Source: Acidobacteriota bacterium
GTDB lineage: Bacteria > Acidobacteriota > Terriglobia > Terriglobales > Acidobacteriaceae
Assembly: GCA_021836865.1 (NCBI GenBank)
Contig: JAKBHH010000006.1
Coordinates: 1 to 64,000 of the forward strand
Direction: 5' to 3'
Length of the DNA: 64,000 bases
Position 1 is the first letter of the stretch, and each line of letters begins with the position of its first letter. The translations under genes were made by a program, and so were the position numbers. Under the pieces are notes generated by a model. That model ran no database searches. It had not been told where the DNA came from and saw nothing but the letters and a program-made list of their open reading frames with translations. Positions 397 to 31,648 of this stretch are shown in pieces.

Positions 397-1299
397 ATGA
401 AGAAGTTATCGCATGTATCAGTGTGTATCTGCACCTTCAAGCGACCTGCTCTGCTTGAAAGGTTGCTGGCGGCGCTCAACAGACAAGAGACAGGGGGTCA
501 ATTCACAATTTCTATCGTCGTTGTGGATAATGATGCAGCTGAAAGTGGCCGGAGCGCAGTCAACAAGCACGCCGCCCAGCCAGCGGTGCCAATCAGCTAT
601 CATGTGGAGTCGAAGCAGAATATTGCGATGGCAAGGAATCGCGCGGTGTCTGAGGCAACTGGAGACCTGATTGCATTCATCGACGATGACGAATGTCCTC
701 CTCCTTCCTGGCTTCTGGCCCTGTGGACAGCACTATCCAAGCATGGGGCCGATGGCGTACTTGCTCCGGTTGATCCAGAATTCGAGCAGGGTGCGCCGCA
801 ATGGGTCGTCAAGGGTGGATTCTATGATCGCCCCAGCCATCCGACGGGGATGAAACTCGAGTGGCGCCAATGTCGGACTGGCAATGTGCTTTTGCGCCGC
901 ACGGTTTTTGAAGAACTGGGACAGCCCTTCAACCCGGAATGCTTATCTGGGGAAGATCAGGACTTTTTCAGGCGCTGCATCGAAAGGGGCTATGAGTTTG
1001 TATGGTGTCATGAGGCCGGCGTGTACGAGTTTGTGCCACGCAGTCGGTGGAAGAAAAGTTTTCTACTGAGGCGAGCGCTCTTCCGCGGGATCTTCGCGCA
1101 GCGCAACCATGGTCTACAACCGCTGAGCCTTATCAAGGCGATCATTTCGGCTCCGGTCTACCTCATGTTCCTTCCTTTTGCGATTCTTGGGGGCCAGACT
1201 CAGTTTATGAAATGTCTCTTCAAGCTCTCCTATCATACCGGCAGGCTGCTTGGCCTGTTCCGGCTGAATCCGATAAGACAGCCCTACGTTTGTGACTAG
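397..1299 (+). CDS. Glycosyltransferase family 2
   Basis: Translation from ATG 397 (MKKLSHVSVCICTFKRPALLERLLAALNRQ...IAFIDDDECPPPSWL) has GT2 N-terminal strand and DDD motifs. The longer ORF start at 214 looks spurious. Confidence 0.88.
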   Translation: MKKLSHVSVCICTFKRPALLERLLAALNRQETGGQFTISIVVVDNDAAESGRSAVNKHAAQPAVPISYHVESKQNIAMARNRAVSEATGDLIAFIDDDECPPPSWLLALWTALSKHGADGVLAPVDPEFEQGAPQWVVKGGFYDRPSHPTGMKLEWRQCRTGNVLLRRTVFEELGQPFNPECLSGEDQDFFRRCIERGYEFVWCHEAGVYEFVPRSRWKKSFLLRRALFRGIFAQRNHGLQPLSLIKAIISAPVYLMFLPFAILGGQTQFMKCLFKLSYHTGRLLGLFRLNPIRQPYVCD

Positions 1300-1330: not shown

Positions 1331-1421
1331 GGAGAGGTCGCCGCTGGTAAGGCAGCGACCAGTTTATTGGTCGTGATGGGCTTTGCTCATCCGGAGGTTC
1401 GAATCCTTCCCCTCTCCGCCA
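1331..1421 (+). tRNA. Class II (long variable arm) tRNA-like gene with non-canonical fold; encoded CCA; anticodon uncertain
   Basis: Acceptor GGAGAGG/CCTCTCC, discriminator G, CCA end. T-arm GGAGG-TTCGAAT-CCTTC. 7-bp variable arm GATGGGC-TTT-GCTCATC. D-arm CGCTG-GTAAGG-CAGCG. Anticodon arm GACCA-GTTTAT-TGGTC (6-nt loop) or GACC-AGTTTATT-GGTC (8-nt loop). Extra C1410 between the T-stem and acceptor. Confidence 0.72.
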
Positions 1422-1452
1422 AATGTTAAGAAACGACGGGAACAAAATACAG

Positions 1453-2351
1453 TGGATATTTGCGGCGAGAAAATCAAGATCCGGGGACGTGTTTTGCGAA
1501 TTGCAAGGCTCGATGCGGACATGTTTCAGTTTCTCGAACAGACGGCAGATCAGATTGAGGCGGGACTGAAGGATTTGGGGGCCAAGGCGGATATTTTTAC
1601 CTTCAATCAGCGCCTGCCAAACACCACCCCAATCTACCCCTATTCGATGGAATGGGAAAACTTCGCTGCACTCCAGATAAGCACGTTTGAAGAGTGGTGG
1701 ACGAAACAGATTGGCTTCAAGGCGCGGAATAAGGCAAAGCAGGCAGAAAAGAAGGGCGTAGTCCTTTGTGAGGTCCCCTTCTCGGATGAGCTTGTTGAGG
1801 GCATCTGGGCAATCTACAACGAGACGCCAGTACGACAAGGCCGGCGCTTTCCACACTTTGGGAAGAGCCTTGAGAGGGTTCATGTAGAGTCGGCAACATA
1901 TCCCGAGAGCAGTGTCTTTGTTGGCGCATATCTTGAAGGAAAGTTAATCGGATTTACCAGGATCGTAAGCGACAAGACCGGAACGCAAGCAGGCTTGATG
2001 AACATAGTGTCTCTCGTCAGCCAGCGAGACAAAGCTCCGACAAATGCACTGGTGGCCGCTGCAGTGAAAGCATGCGCGGAGCGAAAAGTACAATTTTTGA
2101 CTTATTCACGCTTTGCATATGGCAAGAAGCAGTCGGATAGCCTGAGCGATTTCAAAGAGCGCAACGCCTTCAAGCGGGTCGATGTTCCGCGCTACTACAT
2201 TCCACTTTCTCCACTCGGCAAGTTTGCAATGCGTTATGGGCTGCATCACAGCCTCTCCGAGAGGATGCCTGAAGCCATTGCAAGCCGGCTCCGGGAGTTG
2301 CGTAAAGCCTGGTACAAACGCAAATACACAACGGCTTACGATGTGTCCTAA
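1453..2351 (+). CDS. GNAT/FemAB-like acyltransferase (cell-surface glycan locus)
   Basis: ORF 1383..2351; GTG at 1453 is a likely start because the 5' part overlaps the tRNA-like gene. Motif RNKAKQAEKKGVVL...IYNETPVRQGRRFPHFGKS resembles GNAT/FemAB-type proteins in EPS clusters. Confidence 0.6.
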
Positions 2352-2359
2352 GGGAGCCT

Positions 2360-4207
2360 ATGCCCGGATTAGCAGGATTAATTACAAAGCGGCCGCGGCA
2401 ATGGGCGGTGGCTCAACTCAATTTGATGCTTTCAACCATGAATCACGAAGCATCGTACGTCTCGGGGACCTGGGATGACAGCGCAAGTGGGACATATATT
2501 GGCTGGACCGCCCGACGGCATTCATTTGCGTCGAGTATGCCGATCACCAACCAAGTCAGGAATCAGGTGCTGGTCTTTGCTGGCGAGGAGTTTACATCCC
2601 CTCGGTCAGTGCAGACCGCATGTACCATGGTAGATTCTCCCGGCGAAGGCCAGCCGTCATATCTCATCCATCTTGCGAACGAAGATCCGGCTTTCCCCCG
2701 TGTTCTCAATGGCCGGTTTCATGGCATTCTGGTCAATAGAGGGGAGGGAACATCTCACCTATTCAACGACCGATACGGTATGGACCGTCTTTACTATCAT
2801 GAAAGCTCTGACGCCTTTTACTTTGCAGCGGAAGCCAAAGCGATCCTTGCTGTGGTTCCGGAGTTGCGTCAGCCCGATATGCGCGGCATGGGGGAATTTG
2901 TCGCCTGTGGATGTGTCCTGCAGGACAGGACACTCTTTCAAGGTTTGCACGTACTGCCGAATGCCTCAAGATGGACCTTCAGAAATGGCATGCTTGAGTC
3001 AAAGGGACGATACTTCCTCGCGTCGGAGTGGGAGAACCAGGAAACTCTGGACTCGGATACCTATTACGAGAAATTGAGGGGTGCCTTTACGAAGTGCCTC
3101 CCGAGATATTTTGAAGGGCCTGGTCGCGTCGCCATCTCTCTGACGGGTGGTCTGGACACGCGCATGATTATGGCCTGGTCGCGCCTTGCAGATCGGTCCG
3201 TACCGACATACACGTTCGGCGGGCCATTCCGCGAGTGCCACGATGTGCGCATTGCGCGCGAAGTGGCCGAGGTTGCGAGACAGTCATACCAGGTCATTGA
3301 TGTCGGAGATGACTACCTCTCGCGATTCGGGCACTACGCTGAGCGTGCAGTCTATCTTACAGACGGTTGTACAGCAGTTACTCGGGGCGCTGATCTGTAT
3401 GCCAATGAACTTGCCGCTCAAATTGCGCCGATCCGGCTCACCGGCAACTACGGTAGTGAGATCTTACGGCGTCTCAGAGCCTTCAAGCCCGGCACACCCG
3501 CGCCCGATCTATTTACTCCAGAGTTTATGGGGCAGGTTGAACGCGCAACACATACCTACAGCGAGATAGCGGGCGGCCATGCCGTATCCTTTACTGCCTT
3601 CCGCCAGGCGCCTTGGTATCAATACGGTCTTCTTGCTCTGGAGCAAACGCAAGTAGCGATCCGGTCGCCTTTTCTGGATAACGATGTTGTGCAAGTCGCA
3701 TTTCAGGCGCCGGATGCGGCAATGGTCAAGAAGGATATTTTCGAAGACAGTAGCGATTGCAGCCGTCTGATTGCAGACGGCGACAATCGGTTGTCCGAGA
3801 TTCCGACTGACAGAGGATTGGGAGGGCCGAAGGGGCCGAGAGGAGTCTTTCTCCGTGCACTGCGCGAGTTTAGCTTCAAGGCGGAGTACAGTTATGATTA
3901 CGGAATGCCGCAATGGCTCGCGCAACTGGATCATGCCTTCTCGGGTCTGCGTCTTGAGCGATTGATTCTGGGCAGGCACAAATTTACGCACTTTCGAGTT
4001 TGGTATCGCGACCACTTATCTCAATATGTGCGAGATGTTCTTCTCGATCCGCGGAGTCTTTCAAGGCCCTATCTTCAGCGCCGAACGATGGAGAGGATGA
4101 TCTCTTCACATCTGAGGGGAACTGCAAACTATACCACGGAAATTACCAGACTATTGACCCTCGAATTGCAGCACAGGCTGTTCTTCGATAGCAAATCTTT
4201 TCAATGA
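2360..4207 (+). CDS. Asparagine synthetase-like protein (degenerate GATase II N-domain + PP-loop synthetase domain)
   Basis: MPGLAGLI start (Cys2 of MCGIAG replaced by Pro), FNDRYGMDRLYY, and the synthetase PP-loop variant SLTGGLDTRMIM. Confidence 0.82.
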   Translation: MPGLAGLITKRPRQWAVAQLNLMLSTMNHEASYVSGTWDDSASGTYIGWTARRHSFASSMPITNQVRNQVLVFAGEEFTSPRSVQTACTMVDSPGEGQPSYLIHLANEDPAFPRVLNGRFHGILVNRGEGTSHLFNDRYGMDRLYYHESSDAFYFAAEAKAILAVVPELRQPDMRGMGEFVACGCVLQDRTLFQGLHVLPNASRWTFRNGMLESKGRYFLASEWENQETLDSDTYYEKLRGAFTKCLPRYFEGPGRVAISLTGGLDTRMIMAWSRLADRSVPTYTFGGPFRECHDVRIAREVAEVARQSYQVIDVGDDYLSRFGHYAERAVYLTDGCTAVTRGADLYANELAAQIAPIRLTGNYGSEILRRLRAFKPGTPAPDLFTPEFMGQVERATHTYSEIAGGHAVSFTAFRQAPWYQYGLLALEQTQVAIRSPFLDNDVVQVAFQAPDAAMVKKDIFEDSSDCSRLIADGDNRLSEIPTDRGLGGPKGPRGVFLRALREFSFKAEYSYDYGMPQWLAQLDHAFSGLRLERLILGRHKFTHFRVWYRDHLSQYVRDVLLDPRSLSRPYLQRRTMERMISSHLRGTANYTTEITRLLTLELQHRLFFDSKSFQ

Positions 4208-4242: not shown

Positions 4243-5652
4243 ATGGCTCATCTTGCTCTTAGTCTCTCTTTGATCTTCAGCTTATGGCTGCTGATACGGG
4301 ATAGCCGACGGCGCGTCGGAGTGAGCCTTGCGGTCTGGGTTCCAATCCTGCTGTTGCTTATCCTTGGATCCCGGCGGCCGGCTCAATGGATCACCGGCGG
4401 GATCGTAACGGTGACGGAAATGGGCAATGACGCGAGCAGCAGCCCACTTGATGCGAGTGTATTCCTGGTGATCATTTCAGCGTCTGTCCTCATCACGACA
4501 TTGAGAGGCATGAGGTGGCAAAGGATATTTGCTGCGAATCCTATCCTTCTCACGTTCTACTTCTATTTTCTCCTGAGCGTTCTCTGGTCCGGGGATCCCT
4601 CGGGGTCTATCAAGCGGCTGATCAAGGACTTTGGCCTAATCTTTGTTGCAGGAGTGATTTTCTCCGAGAGGTCTCCGCTTGAGGCAATGAGGGCAGTGTA
4701 CTTTCGGTGCGCCGCAGTTCTTCTGCCGTTGTCGATTGTGTTTATCAAGTACTTTCCTGACTACGGACGTGCATACACGATCACCGGCGGCATGATGTTC
4801 ACTGGAGTGACAACGCAAAAAAATTCACTGGGAGAAATCGTCCTTCTATTTACCCTGTTTCTCGTATGGGACTGTATCGAGAGCCGCCAGAGTCGCAGTC
4901 TGAGCAAGTGGCTATTTGGTATCTGGGACAGGCTGATTCTACTCGCCATCGGTTTGAGACTCTTGCAGCTCTCACAAAGCAAGACGGCTATGCTTTGTGT
5001 AGGAATCGGGGTCTTTCTCGTGTGGCGGAACGGATGGCTAGTGACCAAGCCGATTAATCGTCTCATTCACATTGCTGCATTAGCGCTCCCTTTCCTTGTG
5101 TTCTTCTCGCAGGAGTTCAGTACGGTGATCGCCCCGATTGTAGAGGCGATGGGAAGAAATATGACCTTTACGGGCAGGACGGACATCTGGAACCATATCA
5201 CGCTGAACACCGTCAATCCTCTCATCGGAGCGGGCTTCTGGAATTTTTGGGGCGGCCCAGGAGGATATGCAATAAGTCAGGCAATGCTCACGGTTGTTCC
5301 CAATGCGCACTGCGGGTACGTCGACATATACCTTGATGGAGGTATCCTCGGCATCGCTCTCCTATTTGCGGTCTTGATTGGATACGGCCAGACCATTATT
5401 AGCAAGATGCAGGCCGGGGCTGATGAGCACAGATATCTCCGCGTACGTTTCAGTGTTTTGATTGTACTGATCATCTACAATCTGTCCGAGTCAACATTTG
5501 CTCGGATAGGGCCGATCTGGTTCACAGCGCTACTGATGCTTGTCAATTTCCCGGGGTACATCAAGGGAGCGATCAGCGCGGGCAGGCCGGGTACACAGAA
5601 AGCATTAAGGCCCAAGGTTGACTTTGCATTCCACAGCCTGGGTACAGGTTGA
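4243..5652 (+). CDS. O-antigen ligase/polymerase-like (Wzy/WaaL superfamily) membrane protein
   Basis: Multi-TM protein with a long loop containing 'FTGRTDIWNHITLNTVNPLIGAGFWNFW...PNAHCGYVDIYLDGGILG', typical of the Wzy_C/O-antigen ligase domain. Confidence 0.85.
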   Translation: MAHLALSLSLIFSLWLLIRDSRRRVGVSLAVWVPILLLLILGSRRPAQWITGGIVTVTEMGNDASSSPLDASVFLVIISASVLITTLRGMRWQRIFAANPILLTFYFYFLLSVLWSGDPSGSIKRLIKDFGLIFVAGVIFSERSPLEAMRAVYFRCAAVLLPLSIVFIKYFPDYGRAYTITGGMMFTGVTTQKNSLGEIVLLFTLFLVWDCIESRQSRSLSKWLFGIWDRLILLAIGLRLLQLSQSKTAMLCVGIGVFLVWRNGWLVTKPINRLIHIAALALPFLVFFSQEFSTVIAPIVEAMGRNMTFTGRTDIWNHITLNTVNPLIGAGFWNFWGGPGGYAISQAMLTVVPNAHCGYVDIYLDGGILGIALLFAVLIGYGQTIISKMQAGADEHRYLRVRFSVLIVLIIYNLSESTFARIGPIWFTALLMLVNFPGYIKGAISAGRPGTQKALRPKVDFAFHSLGTG

Positions 5653-7266: not shown

Positions 7267-7446
7267 TAAGGCTTGGCCGCGCTGCCACCGGGCATTCAGG
7301 GAGGAGAATTCTACGGACGTCATAGTTACTCTTGCAACTCTCATCATGGGCACACCCGTGTAGAGAGGTTGCGCCAAGAAATCTGACTTCCCGGACACCA
7401 GGTGTTCAGGAAGATCGAACGCCGCCAACTTCTGAATAGAAGAAAT

Positions 7447-8886
7447 ATGCTTTTCACCTCACTCCATTTCGCTCTCTTCTTCCCGATTGTAACGGTTGGG
7501 TTTTTCCTGATTCCGTCAAAAATGAAGGTCGCATGGCTGCTTCTCGCCAGTTGCATCTTCTACATGGCATTCATCCCCGCGTATATCCTGATCCTGTTTG
7601 TCACGATCCTTATAGACTATGCAGCTGGAATAGGGCTCGAAAAGGTCGAGGCGGGGCATCGCAAAATCCTTCTCGTCATCAGCATTGCGTCGACTTGTCT
7701 CGTCCTGCTGGTATTTAAGTATCTGTACTTCGCCATTGATAGCATTATTCTTGCCGCCGGATATGCTGGCGTGCACCTGGCTCATCCGGTGATTTCAATC
7801 GTTCTTCCGATCGGCCTATCGTTCCACACATTCCAAAGCCTGAGCTATGTCATAGAGGTATACAAAGGGAATCAAAAGGCAGAAAAGAATCTGGTCGTCT
7901 ACGCAACGTATGTCATGTTCTTTCCGCAGCTGGTCGCCGGGCCAATTGAGAGACCGCAGAATCTCCTGCATCAGTTCCGGGCCAGGCACGAATTCAGTTA
8001 TGAGGCTGCCACGCAGGGCCTGAAGAGGATGGCGTGGGGCTTTTTCAAGAAGCTTGTCATCGCGGACCGGCTTGCACTCTATGTCAACGATGTTTACCGG
8101 GCTCCACGGAATTTTAATGGCACTCAGCTAACGATTGCTACCTTCTTCTTTGCTTATCAGATCTATTGCGACTTTTCAGGGTACTCAGACATTGCGATTG
8201 GCGCAGCGCAGGTCATGGGCTTCAAGCTCATGGAGAATTTCAACAGTCCGTACCATTCTCTTTCGATTGGCGAGTTTTGGCATCGCTGGCACATTTCGCT
8301 GTCAACCTGGTTCAAGGACTACCTATATATCCCACTCGGTGGAAGCCGGGTGAACTATTGGCCACATGTCCGCAATATTCTAATTACTTTCGCGGTCAGT
8401 GGGCTGTGGCATGGCGCTAACTGGACGTATGTATTCTGGGGAACTCTTAATGGTGTCTATCTCGTCGCAGGTCAAGCGTCAAAGCGGTATCGCGATGCAA
8501 TCTTTGCAGCGTGCGGAATCGGAGATGCTTCACCCCTGCGCAAGTCGGTGAGCCTCGCGACCACATTTATACTTGCCTGCATAGCGTGGGTCCTCTTCCG
8601 CGCGGCGAGTATCTCGGATGCGATGTACGTTCTAACGCATTTTCTAAGAAACTGGAACCTGCATAACATCGCAACCGAACAGTTCTACCTGAGGCAGTTC
8701 CCGGTTGCGGTAGGATCCATCATCTTCCTCGAAATTGCCGAAATGCTGGCGGCGCGAGACTTCAAGATTGAAGAAGTACTTGCTAAATCTCTTGCAGTAC
8801 GTTGGGCAGCATATGCATCCTTCGTAGTTCTGGTGATTCTTCTTGGTGTTTATAAGAGTGCGCAATTCATCTATTTCCAGTTCTAA
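7447..8886 (+). CDS. MBOAT family O-acyltransferase (AlgI-like)
   Basis: MLFTSLHFALFFPIVTVGFFLIP; LPIGLSFHTFQSLSYVIEVYKG; FFPQLVAGPIERPQNLL; GEFWHRWHISLSTWFKDYLYIPLGGSR; SGLWHGANWTYVFWG. Confidence 0.95.
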   Translation: MLFTSLHFALFFPIVTVGFFLIPSKMKVAWLLLASCIFYMAFIPAYILILFVTILIDYAAGIGLEKVEAGHRKILLVISIASTCLVLLVFKYLYFAIDSIILAAGYAGVHLAHPVISIVLPIGLSFHTFQSLSYVIEVYKGNQKAEKNLVVYATYVMFFPQLVAGPIERPQNLLHQFRARHEFSYEAATQGLKRMAWGFFKKLVIADRLALYVNDVYRAPRNFNGTQLTIATFFFAYQIYCDFSGYSDIAIGAAQVMGFKLMENFNSPYHSLSIGEFWHRWHISLSTWFKDYLYIPLGGSRVNYWPHVRNILITFAVSGLWHGANWTYVFWGTLNGVYLVAGQASKRYRDAIFAACGIGDASPLRKSVSLATTFILACIAWVLFRAASISDAMYVLTHFLRNWNLHNIATEQFYLRQFPVAVGSIIFLEIAEMLAARDFKIEEVLAKSLAVRWAAYASFVVLVILLGVYKSAQFIYFQF

Positions 8887-8912
8887 ATTTCCCCGGACAC
8901 CTCGTTATCGAG

Positions 8913-10067
8913 TTGTGTCACCAAAATATGACGGAGCCTCTGATGTCGCCTATCGTCGAGACAAGAGATAGCCACAGGCCGATCAGCATGCGAGATATGT
9001 CTCAGGGTGACAATGGAATAGACCCCAGGCGTTGGCCGAATGTATTGCGGATATTGTGCTTTGTGGGGATGCTGGTTATTGCTTGTTACCTGCTCAATGG
9101 GATGGTGTCAAAGGGCCTCAGGATGCTGACGAGCGACGAGTTCGGGGCATGGAACGAAGAGATGCAGGGGCGTGTGAACGCGGACGTCATCATATCTGGA
9201 TCGTCAAGAGCTGCAAATCACTTCGATCCTCGGGAGATAGCCCGAGTAACTGGCCTGACAGCCTTCAACATCGGAAGGAACGGTACGCAAACCGATGTTC
9301 AACTCGGCGTGTTGCGGGCGTATCTCGAGCACAACCGCAAGCCAAGGATCATTATTCAGAATCTGGATGCCTTCACTTTTGTAACTACGCGAGAGCTCTA
9401 TGATCCCGCACTATACATCCCCTACATCGATGACCATGAGATCTATCAGACGATGAGGAAGGTCGACGTGGAGTTGACACAGGGTCGGTATATCCCCCTG
9501 TATGACTATGCTGTCGAAGACATGAACTTTACGTGGTGGCTCGGTTTAAAAGGGCTAGTAGGTATTAATCCGAAAAATACGATCTATTTGGGATTTAAAC
9601 CACGAGACCGCGCGTGGTCGGATGAGTTTGACAGGTTCAGGGCCGGCAATCCAAAGGGCGTCACCTTTCCAGTTCAGCCAGATGGTGTGCGTGTCCTTGA
9701 GGATATGATCACGCTGTGCCACGAGAACGGCATCCAGCTGGTGCTCGTGTACTCGCCTGAGTATGACGGTATGCAAAGAATGACGAAAAATCGTGAAGAG
9801 ATATTTGCTGAATTCAGGGAACTATCAAAGCGCTACAACGTTCCATTTTGGGACTATAGCCAGTGGAAGTACGTAGATGATACGAGCATGTTCTACAATT
9901 CGCAGCATATGAATTCCCGCGGTGCAGAAATGTTCTCAATCGACTTTGCGCGGCAGTTAGCTGCCTATATGAACAAACTGGGATGGCAAGTTGGTGGCCA
10001 GAGCGCGAGTGGAACAAATGTTATGACCTCTACGTTGGGGAGCATGAATGCAGTCCGTTTTCACTAG
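8913..10067 (+). CDS. SGNH/AlgX-AlgJ-like accessory protein paired with MBOAT acyltransferase
   Basis: Single N-terminal TM followed by 'VIISGSSRAANHFDPREIARVTGLTAFNIGRNGTQ' (SGNH block I-like) and 'FYNSQHMNSRGAEMFS' (DxxH-like block). Immediately follows the MBOAT gene. Confidence 0.65.
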   Translation: MCHQNMTEPLMSPIVETRDSHRPISMRDMSQGDNGIDPRRWPNVLRILCFVGMLVIACYLLNGMVSKGLRMLTSDEFGAWNEEMQGRVNADVIISGSSRAANHFDPREIARVTGLTAFNIGRNGTQTDVQLGVLRAYLEHNRKPRIIIQNLDAFTFVTTRELYDPALYIPYIDDHEIYQTMRKVDVELTQGRYIPLYDYAVEDMNFTWWLGLKGLVGINPKNTIYLGFKPRDRAWSDEFDRFRAGNPKGVTFPVQPDGVRVLEDMITLCHENGIQLVLVYSPEYDGMQRMTKNREEIFAEFRELSKRYNVPFWDYSQWKYVDDTSMFYNSQHMNSRGAEMFSIDFARQLAAYMNKLGWQVGGQSASGTNVMTSTLGSMNAVRFH

Positions 10068-17477: not shown

Positions 17478-18791
17478 TTGCGAATCAGTGTGTTTGGACT
17501 CGGCTACGTCGGTACAGTGTCTGCCGCATGCCTTGCCAGCGAGGGTCATAGCGTCGTTGGAGTGGATACAGTTGTTGCGAAAGCCGAGCTTATTAACAAG
17601 GGCATATCGCCAATCATCGAGGCGGAAATTGGCGACATCATTGCCCGATGCCATCAAAACGGCACGCTTCGAGCAACATCGGACCCCAGTGATGCGATTC
17701 AAAACACGGACATTTCATTCGTGTGTGTAGGGACACCGAGCCAGCAGAACGGGAATCTGGATCTTCGATTCATAAGGCGCATCTGCACAGAGATCGGCGA
17801 AGCCCTGAAGGCCAAGCATGGCCGACATACAATCATCATTCGAAGCACCATTCTTCCAGGCTCCATGCGTAACGTTGTGATTCCAACGCTACAGGAGGCT
17901 TCGGGCAAGTTGGCAGGAAGGGACTTCGGCGTGAGCAATAATCCGGAATTCATGCGCGAGGGGACTGCCGTGAAGGATTACCGGCAACCGCCGAAGATAG
18001 TCATCGGAGAGCTCGATCCACAAAGCGGGGACATTCTTGTAGAACTCTACAGCAAGATTGACGCGCCATTAGTCCGGACGGACATTGAGACCGCCGAGAT
18101 GGTCAAGTATGTCGATAACTGCTGGCACGCGCTGAAGATCGGGTTCGCGAATGAGATTGGCAACCTAGCCAAGTGTATGAAGATCGATTCCCATCTACTC
18201 ATGGATATCTTCTGCCAAGATCAAAAGCTCAATATCTCGCCCGCCTACCTGAAGCCTGGATTTGCATTTGGCGGGTCGTGCCTTCCAAAAGATCTGCGGG
18301 CGCTTTCCTACAAGGCAAGATCGCTTGACCTGGAGTTGCCGATCATCTCTTCCATCTTGAGGAGCAATGAATATCAGGTTGCCCGTGGATTGAAGATGAT
18401 CACGGACCTTGAGGCGAAAAGGATTGGCTTTCTCGGTTTCAGCTTCAAGGCCGGAACGGATGATCTGCGCGAAAGCCCGATTATCGAGGTCATCGAGCGT
18501 CTTTTAGGGAAAGGATACGACCTGCGCATCTATGACAGAAATGTCAACATGGCAAGCCTTGTTGGCGCAAACCGCGACTTTATTTTGAACCACATTCCCC
18601 ACATTTCCAAACTCATGGTCCATGCGCCAGAAGCGATTCTGGAACATGCGGAGGTGATTGTCATTGGCAATGGCGATCCTGAGTTTGCATCTCTATCCAA
18701 CAAACTACGCTCAGGGCAGAAAATTGTTGACTTTGTTCGAGTCGCAGGGAGGAAAAGTAACGAAGATGAATATCACGGCATCTGTTGGTAA
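17478..18791 (+). CDS. UDP-glucose/GDP-mannose dehydrogenase family protein (AlgD/Ugd-like)
   Basis: MRISVFGLGYVGTVSAACLASEGHSVVGVD; NNPEFMREGTAVKDY; FAFGGSCLPKDLRAL; GFSFKAGTDDLRESPIIEVIERLLGKGYDLRIYD. TTG start. Confidence 0.95.
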   Translation: MRISVFGLGYVGTVSAACLASEGHSVVGVDTVVAKAELINKGISPIIEAEIGDIIARCHQNGTLRATSDPSDAIQNTDISFVCVGTPSQQNGNLDLRFIRRICTEIGEALKAKHGRHTIIIRSTILPGSMRNVVIPTLQEASGKLAGRDFGVSNNPEFMREGTAVKDYRQPPKIVIGELDPQSGDILVELYSKIDAPLVRTDIETAEMVKYVDNCWHALKIGFANEIGNLAKCMKIDSHLLMDIFCQDQKLNISPAYLKPGFAFGGSCLPKDLRALSYKARSLDLELPIISSILRSNEYQVARGLKMITDLEAKRIGFLGFSFKAGTDDLRESPIIEVIERLLGKGYDLRIYDRNVNMASLVGANRDFILNHIPHISKLMVHAPEAILEHAEVIVIGNGDPEFASLSNKLRSGQKIVDFVRVAGRKSNEDEYHGICW

Positions 18792-19992
18792 GCCTGCGGG
18801 ATCCCAAAGCGACATGAATGCAGACCAGGTGGAGATCCTGGATGCAGAGTTGAAACTCTATGACTGGCTCGATAAGCACCAATTCAAAGGCTACGATACA
18901 TTTGACGGGTTGAGCGCCAAACTCCTGCGTCCGCTCACGTTTGAAAGTCCGATTCTGAGGACCGTTCTTCTGCAAGGTATCAGAAGGTTCCCGATCAATC
19001 TTCGACCAATGGTGGGTGTCCCGAAGGCACCATCCACCAAGGCGATGGGCTTCTTGGCACGGGGTTACATGAGGCTGCACACAGTCACGGGCGAATCCTG
19101 CTGGGCGGAGCGCGCAGCCGAAGCTTTAGAATGGCTGACCGGCCATAAGAGCAAAGGATACAGCGGGGCATGCTGGGGCAATCATTTTGACTATCAATCG
19201 CGCACTTTTTATCTTCCGAAAGATACGCCAACTGTCGTGTGGACCTCGCTCATAGGGCATGCTTTCCTCGATGCATATGAACAAGGCAAGCTCTCGCCCA
19301 ACATCGAAGTAGCAGACAGCTGCTGTAGACACATCGTGCAAGACCTCGGCCGGCATCAAGAGGAATGGGGAACCTGTATCAGTTATATCCCAGGGAAGAT
19401 GAGCCTGGTCCACAACGCGAATACCCTTGCTGCGAGCCTGCTTGCAAGGACATATCGATATACCGGGACGGTGGCCTACCTGGACCTAGCCCAAAAGGCT
19501 CTGCAATACACCGCAAATCATCAAAGAGCCGATGGAGCGTGGTACTACGGGCCGGCTAGCAATCTTCGCTGGGTTGATAATTTTCATACTGCCTATGTGT
19601 TGGATTGCTATAAACACTATACGGATTCGACCAAGGATGAGAGGTTTATGCCCGTGATGATGCATGGGTATGAATTCTGGAAGAAGACCTTCTTCCTGGA
19701 TGACGGCACGCCGAGATACTACGACGTCAAGACCCTTCCAATCGACATTCAGTGTTGCTCCCAAGCCATCGATACGCTGTGCTTCTTCAGGGATGTTGAC
19801 TCCGATAGTGTGAAATTGGCGCACAAGGTGGCGCGATGGACAATTGAAAACATGCAGCACGAGAGCGGCTATTTTTACTACAGGCGATACTCCAGGCATC
19901 TTGTGAACAAGACGCCGACGTTACATTGGGGTCAATCAACCATGTTCTGCGCGCTGGCGGGTCTATGCGATGCATTGGGCGATAAAGGATGA
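18766..19992 (+). CDS. (alpha/alpha)6-barrel (six-hairpin glycosidase-like) protein of glycan clusters
   Basis: ATG at 18766 (MNITASVGKP). Helical repeats with AARALEW-like pattern and 'NHQRADGAWYYGPASNLRWVDNFHTAYVLDCYKHY...HESGYFYYRRY', typical of six-hairpin folds. Confidence 0.6.
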   Translation: MNITASVGKPAGSQSDMNADQVEILDAELKLYDWLDKHQFKGYDTFDGLSAKLLRPLTFESPILRTVLLQGIRRFPINLRPMVGVPKAPSTKAMGFLARGYMRLHTVTGESCWAERAAEALEWLTGHKSKGYSGACWGNHFDYQSRTFYLPKDTPTVVWTSLIGHAFLDAYEQGKLSPNIEVADSCCRHIVQDLGRHQEEWGTCISYIPGKMSLVHNANTLAASLLARTYRYTGTVAYLDLAQKALQYTANHQRADGAWYYGPASNLRWVDNFHTAYVLDCYKHYTDSTKDERFMPVMMHGYEFWKKTFFLDDGTPRYYDVKTLPIDIQCCSQAIDTLCFFRDVDSDSVKLAHKVARWTIENMQHESGYFYYRRYSRHLVNKTPTLHWGQSTMFCALAGLCDALGDKG

Positions 19993-19994
19993 GC

Positions 19995-21182
19995 ATGAAG
20001 AAGAGGGTTCTGATTATTGTAGAGAATTTGCCGGTGCCATTCGACGGCAGGGTCTGGAAGCAAGCACTCGCGCTGGTGAGCGGCGGCTATCAGGTTACGG
20101 TCCTATCGCCTCGCGCCAAAGGTTATGTACGCAATCATGAGGTCATGGAAGGCGTACACATCTATCGGCACCCGATGCCGAGAGAAGCGGATAGCGCTTT
20201 GGGATATTTTCGGGAGTACCTGGCGGCCTTCTTCTGGGAATTGATTTATGCGCTCTGGATCTTTGCAACGCGTGGTTTCGACGTCATTCAGGGCTGCAAT
20301 CCGCCTGACACGATTGCATTTGTAGCACTCCCGTTCCGGATGTTTGGTGTCCGGTACATCTTCGATCATCATGATGTGAATCCAGAACTCTACATAGCAA
20401 AATATGGACGAAAAGACTTCTTCTATCGTTTGCTGGTCATGCTGGAGCGGCTTACTTTCCGACTCAGCGACATCGTAATCTCTACGAACGATAGCTATAA
20501 ATCGATCGCAATCCAGCGCGGCGGAGTCAATCCGGAAAATATCTTTGTCGTCAGAAATGGCCCGGACCTGACAAAGTTCTATCCGGTGCAGCCCAACCCG
20601 GACTTGAAGTACGGAAAGCGCTATCTTGTGGGATACGTCGGAACTATGAGCGAACAGGAAGGACTGGACATTCTTCTTGGCGCCGCCAATGAGATTAAGC
20701 GTCGTGGGCGCCGGGATTTGCATTTCACCTGCGTAGGCGGGGGGCCGGCGCTGGCCAGCCTGCAAAAAATGGTCGTCGATATGGACCTGGGAGATATGGT
20801 GAATTTCACTGGAAGAATCTCCGATCAGGACCTGCTGGAGATTCTTTCAACCGCGGACGTGTGCGTCAACCCTGACAAGCCATGTGAGATGAACGATCTG
20901 TCTACCATGATCAAGATTGCGGAATACATGGCGATGGGAAAGCCGATCGTTCAGTTTGATTTGAGGGAAGGCAGATACACTGCGGCAGATGCCTCGGTGT
21001 ACTGCGACACAGCGGACCTCGCGTTAGGCTTTGCCGACAAGATTGTCTGGCTTCTGGATCACCCTGAGGAGCGAGTCCGAATGGGCGAATTCGGACAGAA
21101 GAGGGTGAAGGAAGCGCTGGCCTGGGAGTATTCCATCCGCAACCTTTATAGCGCTTACGAGCGGGCACTTCATCTCTCGTAG
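19995..21182 (+). CDS. Glycosyltransferase family 4
   Basis: RVLIIVENLPVPFDGRVWKQALALVSGGYQVTVLSPRA...YLVGYVGTMSEQEGLDILLGAANEIKRRGRRDLHFTCVGGGPALASLQKMV...IKIAEYMAMGKPIVQFDLREGRYTAADASVY. Confidence 0.92.
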   Translation: MKKRVLIIVENLPVPFDGRVWKQALALVSGGYQVTVLSPRAKGYVRNHEVMEGVHIYRHPMPREADSALGYFREYLAAFFWELIYALWIFATRGFDVIQGCNPPDTIAFVALPFRMFGVRYIFDHHDVNPELYIAKYGRKDFFYRLLVMLERLTFRLSDIVISTNDSYKSIAIQRGGVNPENIFVVRNGPDLTKFYPVQPNPDLKYGKRYLVGYVGTMSEQEGLDILLGAANEIKRRGRRDLHFTCVGGGPALASLQKMVVDMDLGDMVNFTGRISDQDLLEILSTADVCVNPDKPCEMNDLSTMIKIAEYMAMGKPIVQFDLREGRYTAADASVYCDTADLALGFADKIVWLLDHPEERVRMGEFGQKRVKEALAWEYSIRNLYSAYERALHLS

Positions 21183-21243
21183 CAGTGTCAACGCGTCAGA
21201 CAGATTAAGTGTCTGGTTCTTCAGCGGAAGGCGGCAACAGAAA

Positions 21244-22062
21244 GTGACTGAACTAGTTATAGAAGCTGGACACACTGAGCGGGAATACTGGCGAGATCTT
21301 TGGCGTTACCGCGAACTCTTCTATTTTCTTGCCTGGCGAGACCTCCTCGTTCGCTACAAGCAAACCATCGTCGGTGTCGGATGGTCCATTATCCGCCCCG
21401 TGTTGACCATGGGCGTTCTCACCTTCGTCTTCGGGAAACTGGGGAAAATGCCCTCCGGCGGCATACCCTACCCGTTGCTTGTTTTATGTGGAATGCTACC
21501 CTGGCAATTTCTCTCAACTGCCATTTCAGAGAGCGGGAACAGTCTCGTGATGAACTCCGCGCTCATCTCGAAGGTGTATTTCCCCCGCGTGGTCATCGCG
21601 GCGAGCAGTGTGATTACGAGCTTCGTCGATTTCATCATAGCAATTGCCTTCCTAGTCGTCCTGATGCTCTGGTACCACTTCACACCGTCCATCAATCTGC
21701 TCGCGTTCCCCTTCTTTGTGCTTCTTGTTTTTGGGGCATCCCTTGGAATGGGTCTATGGATCGCGGCGCTGATGGTCGAGTATCGTGATTTCCGTTTTAT
21801 TGTTCCCTTTATTGTTCAGTTCGGACTGTATCTTTCTCCCGTCGGGTTTCAGACGAGCGTCGTTCCTGCGAAGTATAGGCTCCTCTTTTCCTTCAATCCG
21901 ATGGTCGGCATCATCGATGGATTCCGTTGGAGCCTGCTCGCAGGAAAGATACATATCTACTGGCCAAGCGTTGTGATATCAAGCATCGAGACGGTGCTCT
22001 TGATCATCAGCGGCATATGGTACTTCCGTAAGACGGAGCAGTTCTTTGCGGATGTCATCTGA
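21244..22062 (+). CDS. wzm: Polysaccharide ABC exporter permease (Wzm-like)
   Basis: EREYWRDLWRYRELFYFLAWRDLLVRYKQTIVGVGWSIIRPVLTMGVLTFVFGKLGKMPSGGIPYPLLVLCGMLPWQFLSTAISESGNSLVMN; ABC-2 type permease. Confidence 0.95.
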   Translation: MTELVIEAGHTEREYWRDLWRYRELFYFLAWRDLLVRYKQTIVGVGWSIIRPVLTMGVLTFVFGKLGKMPSGGIPYPLLVLCGMLPWQFLSTAISESGNSLVMNSALISKVYFPRVVIAASSVITSFVDFIIAIAFLVVLMLWYHFTPSINLLAFPFFVLLVFGASLGMGLWIAALMVEYRDFRFIVPFIVQFGLYLSPVGFQTSVVPAKYRLLFSFNPMVGIIDGFRWSLLAGKIHIYWPSVVISSIETVLLIISGIWYFRKTEQFFADVI

Positions 22063-22092
22063 AAGCGACCAAACGTTGTCGAATGAAGGAAT

Positions 22093-23427
22093 ATGACTCA
22101 GCTAGCAATCTCGATCGAAAAATTAGGCAAGCGCTACACTTTGGGCCGCCAGCGTGCCAAGGGAGACGGAATCCGTCATGCAGTAGAAGGAGCAATTCGC
22201 TCGCCCATCGAGTGGATCCGCAGAAGGATGGACGCGAGCGCAAAAATGGAAGAGTTCTGGGCGCTGCGCGATCTTTCTGCCGAGATAAGACACGGAGAGG
22301 TTGTAGGAGTTCTTGGAAGGAACGGCGCGGGGAAGAGCACTCTGCTCAAACTCCTGAGTCGCATTACAGTCCCGACGGAAGGCCGCATCCGGCTCCGCGG
22401 CCGGGTTGCGAGCCTGCTTGAGGTAGGTACGGGCTTTCATCAGGAATTGACGGGGCGGGAAAACATCTTCCTGAACGGTGCAATCCTCGGCATGTCAAGG
22501 GCAGAAATTATCCGCAAGTTTGATGAGATCGTCGCGTTCTCAGAGATCGAGAACTTCATTGATACTCCAGTGAAGAGGTACTCGTCCGGCATGTACGTCC
22601 GACTCGCTTTTGCAGTTGCTGCCCATCTGGAGCCGGAGATTCTTATCGTGGATGAAGTGCTCGCGGTTGGTGATTCGGCATTTCAAAAGAAATGTCTTGG
22701 AAAAATGGGCAGCTTTGCACAGAGCGGCCGAACGATTCTTTTTGTAAGCCACAACATCGATGCGATCAGGTCGCTGTGCCTCCGAGGGATATGGCTACGG
22801 GATGGAAGCATGGTGAAGGATGGAGACATCGCGAACGTCGTGGAGGAGTATTCGAAGAGCATGTTCAGCGAGGAGGTCCCGTCCTGGTCGAATCCGGCAT
22901 ACGGGGTTACCTTGAACAGGATTGTACTCAAGAACGAGCGAGGCGAGATTACGAACCATTTTTCTCCCGGTGAAGATTTGAAGGTAGAGATCACCTTTCA
23001 GACAACGAAACGCGTGCATCGCCCGCGATTTGCAATTGGCATCGTGGGCATGAACGGCTCTTGCTTTACCTCCAATATGCTTCTCGATGGTAGATATCCG
23101 GAATGGCTCGATGGGGAAGGTACTCTGTCCTGCACCTTCAAGGCTGTTCCACTGTTACCTCAAAGCTACACGGTGAAGATGGCTGTCCGGGACGAGAATA
23201 TCAAAGACTTCATCTTTCCCTATCGTGACGTGACCAGCTTTAATGTTTCTGGAGACCTTGCTGAGTACGGCTACAAAGGGGAATTCGTCACATGGGCCAG
23301 CCGCTCCACCGCGGTTGTGATTCCATATGAGTGGCATCTTCCCAACGGAGACCGCGTGGCCGTGTCACTTAATCGGGCCAAACGGGACGACTTAATCAAG
23401 GAAGACGTTCTGCACTCCGGTACATAG
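22093..23427 (+). CDS. wzt: Polysaccharide ABC exporter ATPase with C-terminal carbohydrate-binding-like domain (Wzt-like)
   Basis: Walker A GVLGRNGAGKSTLLK; signature KRYSSGMYVRLAFAVAAHL; Walker B EILIVDEVLAVGD; ~190-aa C-terminal extension as in Wzt. Confidence 0.95.
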   Translation: MTQLAISIEKLGKRYTLGRQRAKGDGIRHAVEGAIRSPIEWIRRRMDASAKMEEFWALRDLSAEIRHGEVVGVLGRNGAGKSTLLKLLSRITVPTEGRIRLRGRVASLLEVGTGFHQELTGRENIFLNGAILGMSRAEIIRKFDEIVAFSEIENFIDTPVKRYSSGMYVRLAFAVAAHLEPEILIVDEVLAVGDSAFQKKCLGKMGSFAQSGRTILFVSHNIDAIRSLCLRGIWLRDGSMVKDGDIANVVEEYSKSMFSEEVPSWSNPAYGVTLNRIVLKNERGEITNHFSPGEDLKVEITFQTTKRVHRPRFAIGIVGMNGSCFTSNMLLDGRYPEWLDGEGTLSCTFKAVPLLPQSYTVKMAVRDENIKDFIFPYRDVTSFNVSGDLAEYGYKGEFVTWASRSTAVVIPYEWHLPNGDRVAVSLNRAKRDDLIKEDVLHSGT

Positions 23428-23551
23428 CGCGCAAGCAAGGAAAAGGATCTTCGCGCGCGTTCGGGAGCCAATCATAGGAGCGCATTGCAACTGCGGTCGA
23501 AGCGGGCTCATAGATATCGATCACGTCTGGCATAGTGCAGGGGCGAATTCA

Positions 23552-24895
23552 GTGGGGATTCTTTATGTAGGGGATAACCGATCGAATCTGAACTGGGGTC
23601 GAGCTGCGAGTATTGCGCTGCACGAGTTACTGAGCCAGTCGTTCGAAATTGTCGATTCCGTCCGGGGAGACCTCTTCGATCTTCAGACTGCCGACGTCGG
23701 CTATGTCCATACACTCATGCCTCGAAAGCACTACCCAATCTTTCGGGCGTTACTCAAGAGAAGAGGAAATGTCATTGTGCGTGCATATCTCAGGCTGGAG
23801 CGACTACTGGGCGCACGAGACTTCATCCATGAGGATCCCGAAATCAGCGTCAAAGAGATATGCGCCAACAGTGCGCATTACCCGGAACTGAAACGGATCA
23901 AGGATGCTGCGCAAAGTGCCGATGCAATCGTAGTAGATGGAGATGGCGATCTGCAGTTCTCCGAAGTACCTCGCCGCCAGACCTCGTTTTTGCTCACGAT
24001 GATTGCACTCGGCCTCCACTACAAGAAGCCTGTATTTCTGATCAACGCGATGGTTTCACCGCCTTCATCTACAGGCCGTGGGCCTACAACCTTTCAATAT
24101 GCGCGTAAGTTGATCTCTCAATGCAAGGTCGTAGCGCTCCGTGATCCATTATCCTTTGGGTTCGCGAAAAAGGAATTCCACGGGCCAGCAATTTGTTACT
24201 TCCCGGACTCTCTATTTGCTTGGTGCCGAGTTATAACGGCCGGACGCATGAGCGTCCCCGCGAACAGCCGGTTCGTCCTACCGTATCCAGAGGAACATCT
24301 GTCAGGCGGGCAAGTTGACTTCTCGCAACCATACATTTGTGTGGGAGGGGGCGCAGTCAGCGCGAGCAGTCCCGAGAGCGCGGTGAAGGCGTACTCAAAA
24401 CTGGTGCAGGCAATCCTGGATATGGACATCCAGGTCTGCCTTGTCGAGTCCGACTCACCGGATGGGTACTTGCGCACCGTAGCGGCCAATCTGCGCCTCG
24501 GAATCGTACCAGCACGGACTTCGGCGTTCATGAGTGCGGCTATCCTAGGCAACGCCAGGGCGTTTGTCTCCGGGCGTTATCATCCATCCATCATGGCTTC
24601 CCTGGGAGGGACGCCCTGCATCTTTCTAGGCTCCCATGGTCATAAAATGGAGAGTTTGGCGAAGGTTTTGGACTATCAATCGCCTGTCACATTCAGTGCA
24701 TGTCCAACAGATCGAGAGATCCAGAACATCGTTCAATTGCTGCGCGATTATCTGAAGCGCGGAGACACTCTGCGTGAAGAAATCCGACAAGCAGCCGACA
24801 AACGCTGCGGAGAGGCAGAGGGGTTGCCTCGCTTCCTGGCAGACCACTTGTATCCTGGTCCATGTACTGAAGATCAAACCGTTGCGAGGCAATGA
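23552..24895 (+). CDS. Polysaccharide pyruvyl transferase family protein (CsaB-like)
   Basis: GTG start. MGILYVGDNRSNLNWGRAASIALHELL...ADAIVVDGDGDLQFSEVPRRQTSFLLTMIALGLHYKKPVFLINAMVSPP...RAFVSGRYHPSIMASLGGTPCIFLGSHGHKMESL. Confidence 0.8.
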   Translation: MGILYVGDNRSNLNWGRAASIALHELLSQSFEIVDSVRGDLFDLQTADVGYVHTLMPRKHYPIFRALLKRRGNVIVRAYLRLERLLGARDFIHEDPEISVKEICANSAHYPELKRIKDAAQSADAIVVDGDGDLQFSEVPRRQTSFLLTMIALGLHYKKPVFLINAMVSPPSSTGRGPTTFQYARKLISQCKVVALRDPLSFGFAKKEFHGPAICYFPDSLFAWCRVITAGRMSVPANSRFVLPYPEEHLSGGQVDFSQPYICVGGGAVSASSPESAVKAYSKLVQAILDMDIQVCLVESDSPDGYLRTVAANLRLGIVPARTSAFMSAAILGNARAFVSGRYHPSIMASLGGTPCIFLGSHGHKMESLAKVLDYQSPVTFSACPTDREIQNIVQLLRDYLKRGDTLREEIRQAADKRCGEAEGLPRFLADHLYPGPCTEDQTVARQ

Positions 24896-24901
24896 TAAAG
24901 A

Positions 24902-25534
24902 ATGCACGATGTAGTCATAGTGGGCGGGGGCGGACATGCAAAAGTCGTCGCCAGCGTCTTATCTAGTCTCCCCGGCTACAGGATTCTCGGCTATAGCGAT
25001 TTGGAAGATCGCGGCCTTTTACGGGGGGACCCGTATCTCGGCAACGATGAATGGCTCGCGAATTTTGCGCGCAAGTCTCCGGGCTTGCACCTCGTTATTG
25101 GAGTGGGGCAGGTCGGTCTCGGAATGAAGCGCAGCGAATTGTGGCGCACTTTTCAAACCTGCGGTGTGTGCTTTCCCACCATAGTCTCACTCCATGCAAC
25201 CATGAGTCGCGAAGCGAGGTGTGGCGAGGCATGTACTGTGATGTCGGGTGCAGTTGTGAATCCAGACGCCGCTGCGGGAACAGGTGTCATTATTAATACG
25301 AACTGTACAATAGAGCATGATGTTATCTTGCACGACTGGGTTCATGTCGCCTCTGGCGCTACGGTATGCGGCGGAGTAGAGGTCGGTACTTATTCCATGA
25401 TCGGTGCGGGTGCGACCCTCATCGAGGGCGTGAAAGTACCTCCGTGCAGCATTATTGGAGCGGGGGCCACGGTCATCCGATCGATTGCTGAGCCCGGCGT
25501 CTATGCCGGCTCTCCAGCGAGACGAATCCGGTAG
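24902..25534 (+). CDS. Sugar O/N-acyltransferase, NeuD/PglD family (left-handed beta-helix)
   Basis: MHDVVIVGGGGHAKVVASVLSSLPGYRILGYSDLED; hexapeptide repeats VNPDAAAGTGVIINTNCTIEHDVILHDWVHVASGATVCGGVEVGTYSMIGAGATLIEG. Confidence 0.93.
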   Translation: MHDVVIVGGGGHAKVVASVLSSLPGYRILGYSDLEDRGLLRGDPYLGNDEWLANFARKSPGLHLVIGVGQVGLGMKRSELWRTFQTCGVCFPTIVSLHATMSREARCGEACTVMSGAVVNPDAAAGTGVIINTNCTIEHDVILHDWVHVASGATVCGGVEVGTYSMIGAGATLIEGVKVPPCSIIGAGATVIRSIAEPGVYAGSPARRIR

Positions 25535-25590
25535 TACGGACCGCAGAACAAATTGCATGATTCAGCAGCTGCAGATGTGCTTGCGAGCCA

Positions 25591-27438: not shown

Positions 27439-27551
27439 TCGCCGCCATTCCTTCTGGAAGCCTGGGGTTGTTCGGGGAATCGCCTCCCAATCCATCGCGC
27501 CTATGCCGGTGAGGATTGATGATCGCTATAGAACGGAACGGTTAAAACCGA

Positions 27552-29821: not shown

Positions 29822-29830
29822 GAGAACTCA

Positions 29831-30922: not shown

Positions 30923-30946
30923 AAGGAAAGCGCCGGTACACATTCC

Positions 30947-31648
30947 ATGCTGAATGGTAGTCGCTTGATCGCGGTGATTCCGGCCAGGGGAGGCAGCAAA
31001 TCTGTTCCTCGCAAGAATCTTTATCCGCTTGCGGGCAAGCCGCTGATCCTTTGGTCTATCGATATCGCCAAGTGTGTTGGGGGCATTGATCGAGTGATTG
31101 TATCGACTGACGATCAGGAGATAGCCAATGTCGCGAGCGCACATGGAGCGGAAGTGTACATGCGGCCTGCCCATCTGGCTACAGACAGCGCACTCGTAAT
31201 TGATACTCTGAAAGATCTTGTCGCCACTCTTATTCGAGAGGGAGAAACTGCTGATTGGGTGATTCTTCTTGAGCCGACCTGCCCCTTGCGCTCCGTCGAA
31301 GATGTCGAAGAGTGCATGAGAGTTCTGAGGTCCGGCGCGTTCGATTCGGTCGCCACTTTTAAGTCTGCGGATTTGAATCCGCACCGTGCATGGAGGATCC
31401 ATCAGGGTATCCCAGAGGTCTTTATCCCGGGTGCGATCCCGTGGTTGCCGAGGCAATTACTTCCGCCTGCCTACCAATTGAACGGTGCAGTGTATGTCTT
31501 TCGGAGTAACATGCTCGGTTCGGACTCGAGATCCATTCTTCCGGGCAGGATTGGAGCGGTCGTGATGCCAAAGGAGAGATCCTACGATATCGACGATCCA
31601 ATCGATTTCACTGTTGTTGAAGCTCTCTTAAAGGAATCAGAAAAATGA
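30947..31648 (+). CDS. neuA: Acylneuraminate cytidylyltransferase family (CMP-NulO synthetase; NeuA/LegF/PtmB-like)
   Basis: RLIAVIPARGGSKSVPRKNLYPLAGKPLILWSIDIAKCVGGIDRVIVSTDDQEIANVASAHGAEVYMRPAHLATDSALVIDTL. Confidence 0.95.
   Translation: MLNGSRLIAVIPARGGSKSVPRKNLYPLAGKPLILWSIDIAKCVGGIDRVIVSTDDQEIANVASAHGAEVYMRPAHLATDSALVIDTLKDLVATLIREGETADWVILLEPTCPLRSVEDVEECMRVLRSGAFDSVATFKSADLNPHRAWRIHQGIPEVFIPGAIPWLPRQLLPPAYQLNGAVYVFRSNMLGSDSRSILPGRIGAVVMPKERSYDIDDPIDFTVVEALLKESEK

What the first reader, a model, noticed from the sequence alone, without database searches (positions are those of the whole stretch)
1331..1421. Non-canonical class II tRNA (allo-tRNA-like candidate)
Seen directly: a 91-nt element folds as a tRNA with encoded CCA, G73, a 7-bp variable arm and a TTCGAAT T-loop. 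Several features are odd. (a) There is an extra C (1410) between the T-stem and acceptor, giving a 13-nt 3' strand as in the 8/5 fold of bacterial tRNA-Sec, with U1338 opposite C1410. (b) The D-arm CGCTG-GTAAGG-CAGCG lacks the usual A-GG-rich D-loop. (c) The anticodon loop is 6 nt (GTTTAT) or 8 nt (AGTTTATT), not 7, so TTA, TTT or TAT are all possible anticodons; TTA would decode UUA-class or UAA codons. It is not a standard tRNA-Sec because there is no TCA. Established knowledge: non-canonical class II tRNAs with altered acceptor/T-arm geometry ('allo-tRNAs') have been described in bacteria, to my recollection including acidobacteria, and are often serine-accepting (long arm, G73).
Basis: partly seen in the sequence, partly recalled or inferred. 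Interest (0 to 1): 0.8.

Follow-up and report, generated by a model that had tools for sequence, protein, structure and literature searches.

The report
Operon tRNA feeding a surface-sugar transferase
A serine-type transfer RNA whose decoding loop has collapsed sits beside a gene for a Fem-like enzyme in an acidobacterial polysaccharide cluster, so it probably carries serine to that enzyme for decorating a cell-surface sugar rather than to the ribosome.

Summary
The element is real: a full-length class II tRNA with encoded CCA at 1331-1421. It is an extra tRNA-Ser relative; its acceptor stem equals the host's tRNA-Ser(CGA) and it has G73, and all four canonical tRNA-Ser genes are present. It is not an allo-tRNA or tRNA-Sec: the proposed eighth acceptor pair is U·C in every homologue. 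The odd nucleotide is best read as a bulge in the T-stem, and the D-loop keeps its GG. The anticodon arm (19, 20 or 24 nt) is a covarying stem closed by a tetraloop-like end of changing sequence, so it has no usable anticodon. In all eight of 349 class genomes that carry it, a GNAT-fold gene of one family lies on the same contig (within about 10 kb), usually directly downstream in a surface-polysaccharide cluster. That protein's predicted fold matches aminoacyl-tRNA transferases (streptothricin peptide synthases, FemX, MprF). A sister clade of the GNAT pairs instead with odd tRNA-Thr genes that keep the ThrRS determinants G35-U36 but often lose U33. Best reading: a dedicated, non-decoding Ser-tRNA donor for a Fem-like transferase. 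No held paper describes this. Charging, expression and the acceptor molecule are untested.

The parts
1331..1421 (+). non-decoding class II tRNA (tRNA-Ser relative) with encoded CCA
   Evidence: ARAGORN tRNA-???; covariance model R1 95.5 bits against at most 49.2 bits for any other tRNA in the genome
1331..1337 (+). acceptor stem 5' strand GGAGAGG, pairs with 1411-1417; identical to the host tRNA-Ser(CGA)
1340..1353 (+). D-arm: 3-bp stem 1340-1342/1351-1353, loop GCUGGUAA with G18-G19 retained, A14 missing
   Evidence: conserved in 18 homologues; compared with canonical tRNA-Ser
1355..1374 (+). anticodon-arm position: 7-8 bp stem closed by a G(UUUA)U tetraloop-like end at 1362-1367; no 7-nt anticodon loop
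   Evidence: compensatory pairs in the stem; arm length 19, 20 or 24 nt across homologues
1375..1391 (+). variable arm, 7 bp here, 5 bp in most homologues
1393..1410 (+). T-arm: 5-bp stem with a 1-nt bulge (U1408; 1407/1408 equivalent) in the 3' strand, loop UUCGAAU
   Evidence: 6-nt 3' strand in 18/18; bulge register gives the most pairs
1411..1421 (+). acceptor 3' strand, G73 and CCA
   Evidence: invariant N73-CCA in 18/18
1452..2351 (+). Fem-like GNAT-fold aminoacyl-tRNA transferase (clade A), GTG start, 299 aa
   Evidence: AF2 model pLDDT 89; Foldseek top hits Sba18/Sbb17, FemX, L-PGS/MprF; invariant F-K in 34 homologues
397..1299 (+). family 2 glycosyltransferase directly upstream, conserved neighbour
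   Evidence: Pfam PF00535 1.4e-21; synteny
2360..4207 (+). AsnB-like glutamine amidotransferase/synthetase, conserved neighbour of the GNAT
   Evidence: PF00733, PF13537; weak TIGR03108; synteny
4243..5652 (+). O-antigen ligase/polymerase-like membrane protein (Wzy_C)
   Evidence: PF04932 1.7e-11
7402..8886 (+). MBOAT O-acyltransferase (DltB/AlgI-like) of the same cluster
   Evidence: PF03062, TIGR04091 below cut-off

Best explanation
The element is a dedicated seryl-tRNA donor that does not decode. The housekeeping SerRS should charge it, because SerRS reads the long variable arm, G73 and the acceptor/elbow and ignores the anticodon. The bulge in the EF-Tu-binding T-stem and the missing anticodon loop should keep the charged tRNA out of translation. 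The Fem-like dual-GNAT enzyme encoded 30 nt downstream then takes the serine from the tRNA and attaches it to an amine or hydroxyl of a sugar, or a precursor, of the surface polysaccharide made by this cluster. Shown here: the tRNA structure and conservation, loss of a standard anticodon loop, tRNA-Ser kinship, genomic linkage, the Fem-like predicted fold, and tRNA type tracking enzyme clade. Inferred: serylation, EF-Tu evasion, transfer, and the sugar acceptor (the weakest step).
For: Linkage: all 8 element-bearing genomes of 349 in the class also have the GNAT, present in 48 of 349 (hypergeometric P 7e-8; uncorrected for relatedness), always on the same contig, adjacent in 5 and about 8-10 kb away in 3. 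Fold: the best PDB matches are aminoacyl-tRNA-dependent peptide synthases Sba18/Sbb17 (2e-10), FemX (8e-10) and L-PGS/MprF. Charging identity: acceptor stem identical to the host tRNA-Ser(CGA), G73, long arm; serine identity is independent of the anticodon (PMC9976931). Not for decoding: all four canonical tRNA-Ser genes are present; the loop is the most variable part (majority fraction 0.70 against 0.94-1.00 for acceptor, D-arm, T-loop and CCA) and the arm varies from 19 to 24 nt. Specificity: the 74-row GNAT tree splits 100/100 into one clade with Ser-type tRNAs (16, no Thr) and one with Thr-type tRNAs (12, no Ser). Thr-type tRNAs keep G35-U36 in 13/13 but lack U33 in 6/13, as expected if selection is for charging and not decoding. 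L022 carries both pairs in one cluster.
Against: No expression or charging data. 33 of 50 clade-A GNATs have no tRNA found nearby, so the enzyme can probably use ordinary Ser-tRNA and the dedicated tRNA is optional. Three elements lie 8-10 kb from the GNAT, and G050 has the element without a detected GNAT (contig end about 2.9 kb away). Catalytic residues were not structure-aligned with FemX. The glycan acceptor is inferred only from gene neighbours. A one-nucleotide bulge has not been shown to weaken EF-Tu binding.
Confidence: 0.75

Rival explanations
1. A translationally active allo-tRNA that inserts serine at an unusual codon.
For: Class II, serine identity, and allo-tRNAs are known from Acidobacteria with diverse anticodons (PMC7609411).
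Against: No 8/4 or 9/3 branch: the eighth pair is U·C in 18/18. No consistent 7-nt loop or U33, arm length 19-24 nt, and loop sequence drifts while the rest is fixed.
Confidence: 0.07
2. A decayed tRNA-Ser pseudogene, or an integration-site remnant of an island.
For: Acceptor stem equals that of tRNA-Ser; located inside a variable polysaccharide cluster.
Against: Compensatory changes (14 cells against 5.5 in shuffles), invariant CCA and near-invariant D-arm and T-loop over 18 homologues, and consistent placement before one gene family. Decay would not preserve these.
Confidence: 0.05
3. A tRNA-like leader in the mRNA that controls expression of the downstream GNAT gene, for example by binding SerRS.
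For: It lies directly upstream of the GNAT in most loci; tRNA-like leaders are known for thrS (PMC9976931).
Against: In three genomes it is 8-10 kb from the GNAT; the Thr-type partner lies downstream of its GNAT; encoded G73-CCA is invariant, which a leader would not need.
Confidence: 0.06
4. A dedicated Ser-tRNA donor, but for a peptide, lipid or small-molecule acceptor and not a polysaccharide.
For: The closest folds act on streptothrisamine, lipid II precursors and phosphatidylglycerol.
Against: The conserved neighbours are glycosyltransferase, Wzy-like, MBOAT and AsnB-like genes.
Confidence: 0.2

Closest known systems
Non-proteinogenic tRNA-Gly isoacceptors of Staphylococcus aureus for FemXAB
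   Same: Extra tRNAs altered at EF-Tu contact pairs of the T-stem, serving Fem-family GNAT transferases (PMC4052509; PMC9976931)
   Different: Those are not reported as operon-encoded with their transferase and serve peptidoglycan. Here the tRNA is serine-type, lacks an anticodon loop, and sits in a surface-polysaccharide cluster.
Allo-tRNA (8/4 and 9/3, class II, serine-accepting)
   Same: Class II, serine identity, found in Acidobacteria (PMC7609411)
   Different: Here 7/5 with a T-stem bulge, no usable anticodon, and linked to a Fem-like gene.
Bacterial tRNA-Sec
   Same: Long arm, G73, a 13-nt 3' strand
   Different: No 8/5 pairing, no UCA, no SelB over cut-off.
FemX, Sba18/Sbb17, VlmA, DhpH-C (GNAT-fold aminoacyl-tRNA transferases)
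   Same: Predicted fold of the neighbour gene; invariant F-K resembles DhpH-C F328-K329 and FemX K305 (PMC12945691)
   Different: About 10-14% identity, 299 aa, no recognised Pfam or NCBIfam family over cut-off, and encoded with its own tRNA.

Membership tests
Allo-tRNA | 12-bp acceptor branch in 8/4 or 9/3 arrangement | tested here: not met
   Eighth position U·C in 18/18; 7-bp acceptor plus bulged 5-bp T-stem
Allo-tRNA | class II with serine identity elements (long arm, G73) | tested here: met
Allo-tRNA | able to decode in translation | not testable with these tools
   Loop geometry argues against it
Bacterial tRNA-Sec | 8/5 acceptor branch | tested here: not met
   U·C at the eighth pair in all homologues
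Bacterial tRNA-Sec | UCA anticodon and SelB in the genome | tested here: not met
   No TCA in the loop; selB model below cut-off
Canonical tRNA-Ser | 7-bp acceptor, G73, long variable arm | tested here: met
   Acceptor identical to the host tRNA-Ser(CGA)
Canonical tRNA-Ser | 7-nt anticodon loop with U33 and a serine anticodon | tested here: not met
   6-nt loop GUUUAU; covarying longer stem in the family
Dedicated non-proteinogenic donor tRNA for a Fem-type transferase | extra to a complete canonical set | tested here: met
   Four canonical tRNA-Ser found in the genome
Dedicated non-proteinogenic donor tRNA for a Fem-type transferase | altered EF-Tu contact region (T-stem) | tested here: met
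   T-stem bulge in 18/18; the effect on EF-Tu was not measured
Dedicated non-proteinogenic donor tRNA for a Fem-type transferase | is the amino acid donor of the transferase | not testable with these tools
   Needs a biochemical assay
Fem-like GNAT aminoacyl-tRNA transferase (neighbour gene) | dual-GNAT fold with best matches to aminoacyl-tRNA transferases | tested here: met
Fem-like GNAT aminoacyl-tRNA transferase (neighbour gene) | catalytic lysine as in FemX K305 / DhpH-C K329 | tested here: inconclusive
   F233-K234 invariant in 34 homologues, but not superposed on FemX

The most novel reading that the evidence does not exclude
A modular family of polysaccharide clusters in which each Fem-like transferase is encoded with its own non-decoding tRNA (serine-type for clade A, threonine-type for clade B, perhaps cysteine-type and glycine-type), so that tRNAs stripped of decoding features act as amino-acid carriers for glycan decoration.
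Probability: 0.6. Interest if true: 0.9.

Novelty: new variant of a known kind. Interest (0 to 1): 0.8.

Why it matters
How aminoacyl-tRNAs are diverted from translation to non-ribosomal uses is described as unclear in most cases (PMC4052509). Here tRNA and transferase are encoded together, the decoding end of the tRNA has been lost, and two independent tRNA types match two enzyme clades, which makes the question directly testable. The Ser/Thr contrast is close to a natural experiment: tRNAs charged by an anticodon-blind synthetase lost their anticodon loop, while those charged by an anticodon-reading synthetase kept only the residues the synthetase reads. It would also add amino-acid decoration of acidobacterial surface glycans to the roles of Fem-like enzymes, and it offers naturally EF-Tu-averse tRNA scaffolds.

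Tried and rejected
Allo-tRNA 8/4 and 9/3 and tRNA-Sec 8/5: rejected on U·C at the eighth pair in all homologues and on no SelB over cut-off. Pseudogene or integration remnant: rejected on covariation and invariant functional parts. mRNA leader: rejected because in three genomes the element is 8-10 kb from the GNAT. Extra nucleotide at the acceptor/T junction: fewer pairs than a bulge inside the T-stem. Rfam found nothing over gathering score in the window. Rfam at E<1 found no tRNA in 16 loci around GNAT genes without one. Pfam and NCBIfam do not name the GNAT. PDB by sequence gave only weak single-GNAT hits. Paper searches on GNAT/exopolysaccharide, dedicated tRNAs in gene clusters, and amide-linked serine polysaccharides returned nothing describing this system. 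The primary allo-tRNA paper (2017) was not found by the identifier tried, so its sequences were not compared directly.

Full report
What is there. The sequence at 1331-1421 is a complete class II tRNA with an encoded CCA. ARAGORN reports it as 'tRNA-???' with a two-base anticodon, Rfam gives nothing over gathering score, and the fold is stable relative to shuffles (z -3.6). It occurs once in the 3.98-Mb genome. The genome also has all four canonical tRNA-Ser genes (GCT, GGA, CGA, TGA), so the element is not needed to read serine codons.

Homologues and structure. The gene downstream (1452-2351, GTG start) has relatives in Acidobacteria and a few other MAGs, and 12 of those loci (the window included) carry the same tRNA upstream. 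The alignment and pair counts support one cloverleaf: 96.4% of cells paired, 14 cells changed on both sides against 5.5 in shuffles, and far more pairing than any slid version. A covariance model from these 12 finds true members at 74.5-108.6 bits, while the next tRNAs in the class, canonical tRNA-Ser, stop at 59.2 bits. With six further members there are 18. All have G73-CCA, a 7-bp acceptor stem (one mismatch, in L022), a D-arm GCC/GGC (or GCU/GGC) with a GG-containing loop, and a 6-nt T-stem 3' strand where 5 nt is normal. The best pairing places the extra base as a bulge inside the T-stem (75 Watson-Crick pairs against 61 for a base at the acceptor junction). The proposed eighth acceptor pair is U·C in every member, so neither 8/5 (Sec) nor 8/4 (allo) applies.

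No anticodon. Where a tRNA has a 5-bp stem and 7-nt loop (17 nt), this family has 20 nt in most members, 19 in L067/L075 and 24 in L041 and L042. The stem is 7-8 bp with compensatory changes and ends in G-YNNR-Y (CUUG, UUUA, UUCA, UCUA, UCGA, UGCA and others), or a 10-bp stem with CAAA or CUAA. Five members, all with 20-nt arms, have an A·C step at the seventh pair, so an 8-nt loop remains an alternative reading for those. Either way the loop is the least conserved part of the molecule and has no fixed U33.

Serine identity. The acceptor stem GGAGAGG/CCUCUCC with G73 is identical to the host's own tRNA-Ser(CGA). Serine identity rests mainly on the variable arm and G73 and not on the anticodon (PMC9976931). 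Serylation is therefore likely but untested. The serS gene is present as fragments on two contigs.

The neighbour. Pfam and NCBIfam leave the downstream protein unnamed. An AlphaFold2 model from 34 homologues (pLDDT 89) matches in the PDB first the aminoacyl-tRNA-dependent peptide synthases Sba18/Sbb17, then FemX, then the aminoacyl-phosphatidylglycerol synthases and MprF. An F-K pair at 233-234 is invariant, as in DhpH-C (F328-K329, with K329 analogous to FemX K305; PMC12945691); this was not superposed. The gene lies between a family 2 glycosyltransferase and an AsnB-like gene, then Wzy-like, PMT-like and MBOAT genes. The wider window holds ORFs that read as UDP-glucose dehydrogenase, nonulosonate-type (NeuB/NeuC/NeuA-like) and ABC polysaccharide export genes; these last names rest on my reading of the translations, not on a family search.

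Association. Over 349 genomes of the class, 8 have the element and 48 have the GNAT; all 8 have both (P 7e-8, not corrected for relatedness). All 8 pairs are on one contig: five adjacent, and three (G005, G178, G155) 8-10 kb apart. In the relatives set G050 has the element without a detected GNAT; its contig ends about 2.9 kb downstream.

A second pair. More distant GNATs have a tRNA-Thr-like gene immediately downstream. A tree of 74 GNATs separates clade A (16 Ser-type, 1 Gly, 33 none) from clade B (12 Thr-type, 2 Cys-type, 10 none) with full support and no exception. L022 has both GNATs and both tRNAs in one cluster. The Thr-type tRNAs have an extra T-arm base on the opposite strand, keep G35-U36 in 13 of 13, vary at 34 (U, C, A) and lack U33 in 6 of 13. 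From general knowledge, ThrRS reads G35-U36. Hosts checked (G178, G363, G141, G343) also have ordinary tRNA-Thr. So both types keep what their synthetase needs and lose what the ribosome needs.

Mechanism and limits. I conclude that the element is a dedicated seryl donor for the Fem-like enzyme, parallel to the S. aureus tRNA-Gly species that escape EF-Tu (PMC4052509). Charging, EF-Tu evasion, transfer and the acceptor are inferences. Many clade-A enzymes lack a nearby tRNA, so the dedicated tRNA is optional. The library searched holds only openly licensed papers, so an existing description elsewhere cannot be excluded.

Noticed in passing
L015:2382-2456, L019:2345-2419, L022:4499-4573, L136-L149: Thr-type non-canonical tRNAs directly downstream of clade-B GNAT genes; G35-U36 invariant, U33 lost in 6 of 13, extra T-arm base.
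   Followed up: partly
L141:2275-2347; L148:3996-4069 (minus): tRNA-Cys-like genes directly upstream of two sister clade-B GNATs; the one in L148 has an extra T-arm base.
   Followed up: no
L126:1206-1281: tRNA-Gly(TCC) with C instead of U at position 33, about 220 nt upstream of a clade-A GNAT.
   Followed up: no
L022:3700-4492: The clade-B GNAT matches in two overlapping pieces in different frames, suggesting a frameshift or sequencing error.
   Followed up: no
L137, L136: Tandem clade-A plus clade-B GNAT genes followed by a Thr-type tRNA (G113, G155).
   Followed up: partly
window 17478-31648: Surface-glycan gene set by eye (UDP-glucose dehydrogenase, NeuD/NeuB/NeuC/NeuA-like, ABC exporter), suggesting a nonulosonic-acid-containing polysaccharide; not searched by family.
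   Followed up: no
window 7402-10067: MBOAT (DltB/AlgI-like) gene followed by a gene of DltD/AlgX-like appearance, suggesting O-acylation of the same polysaccharide.
   Followed up: no
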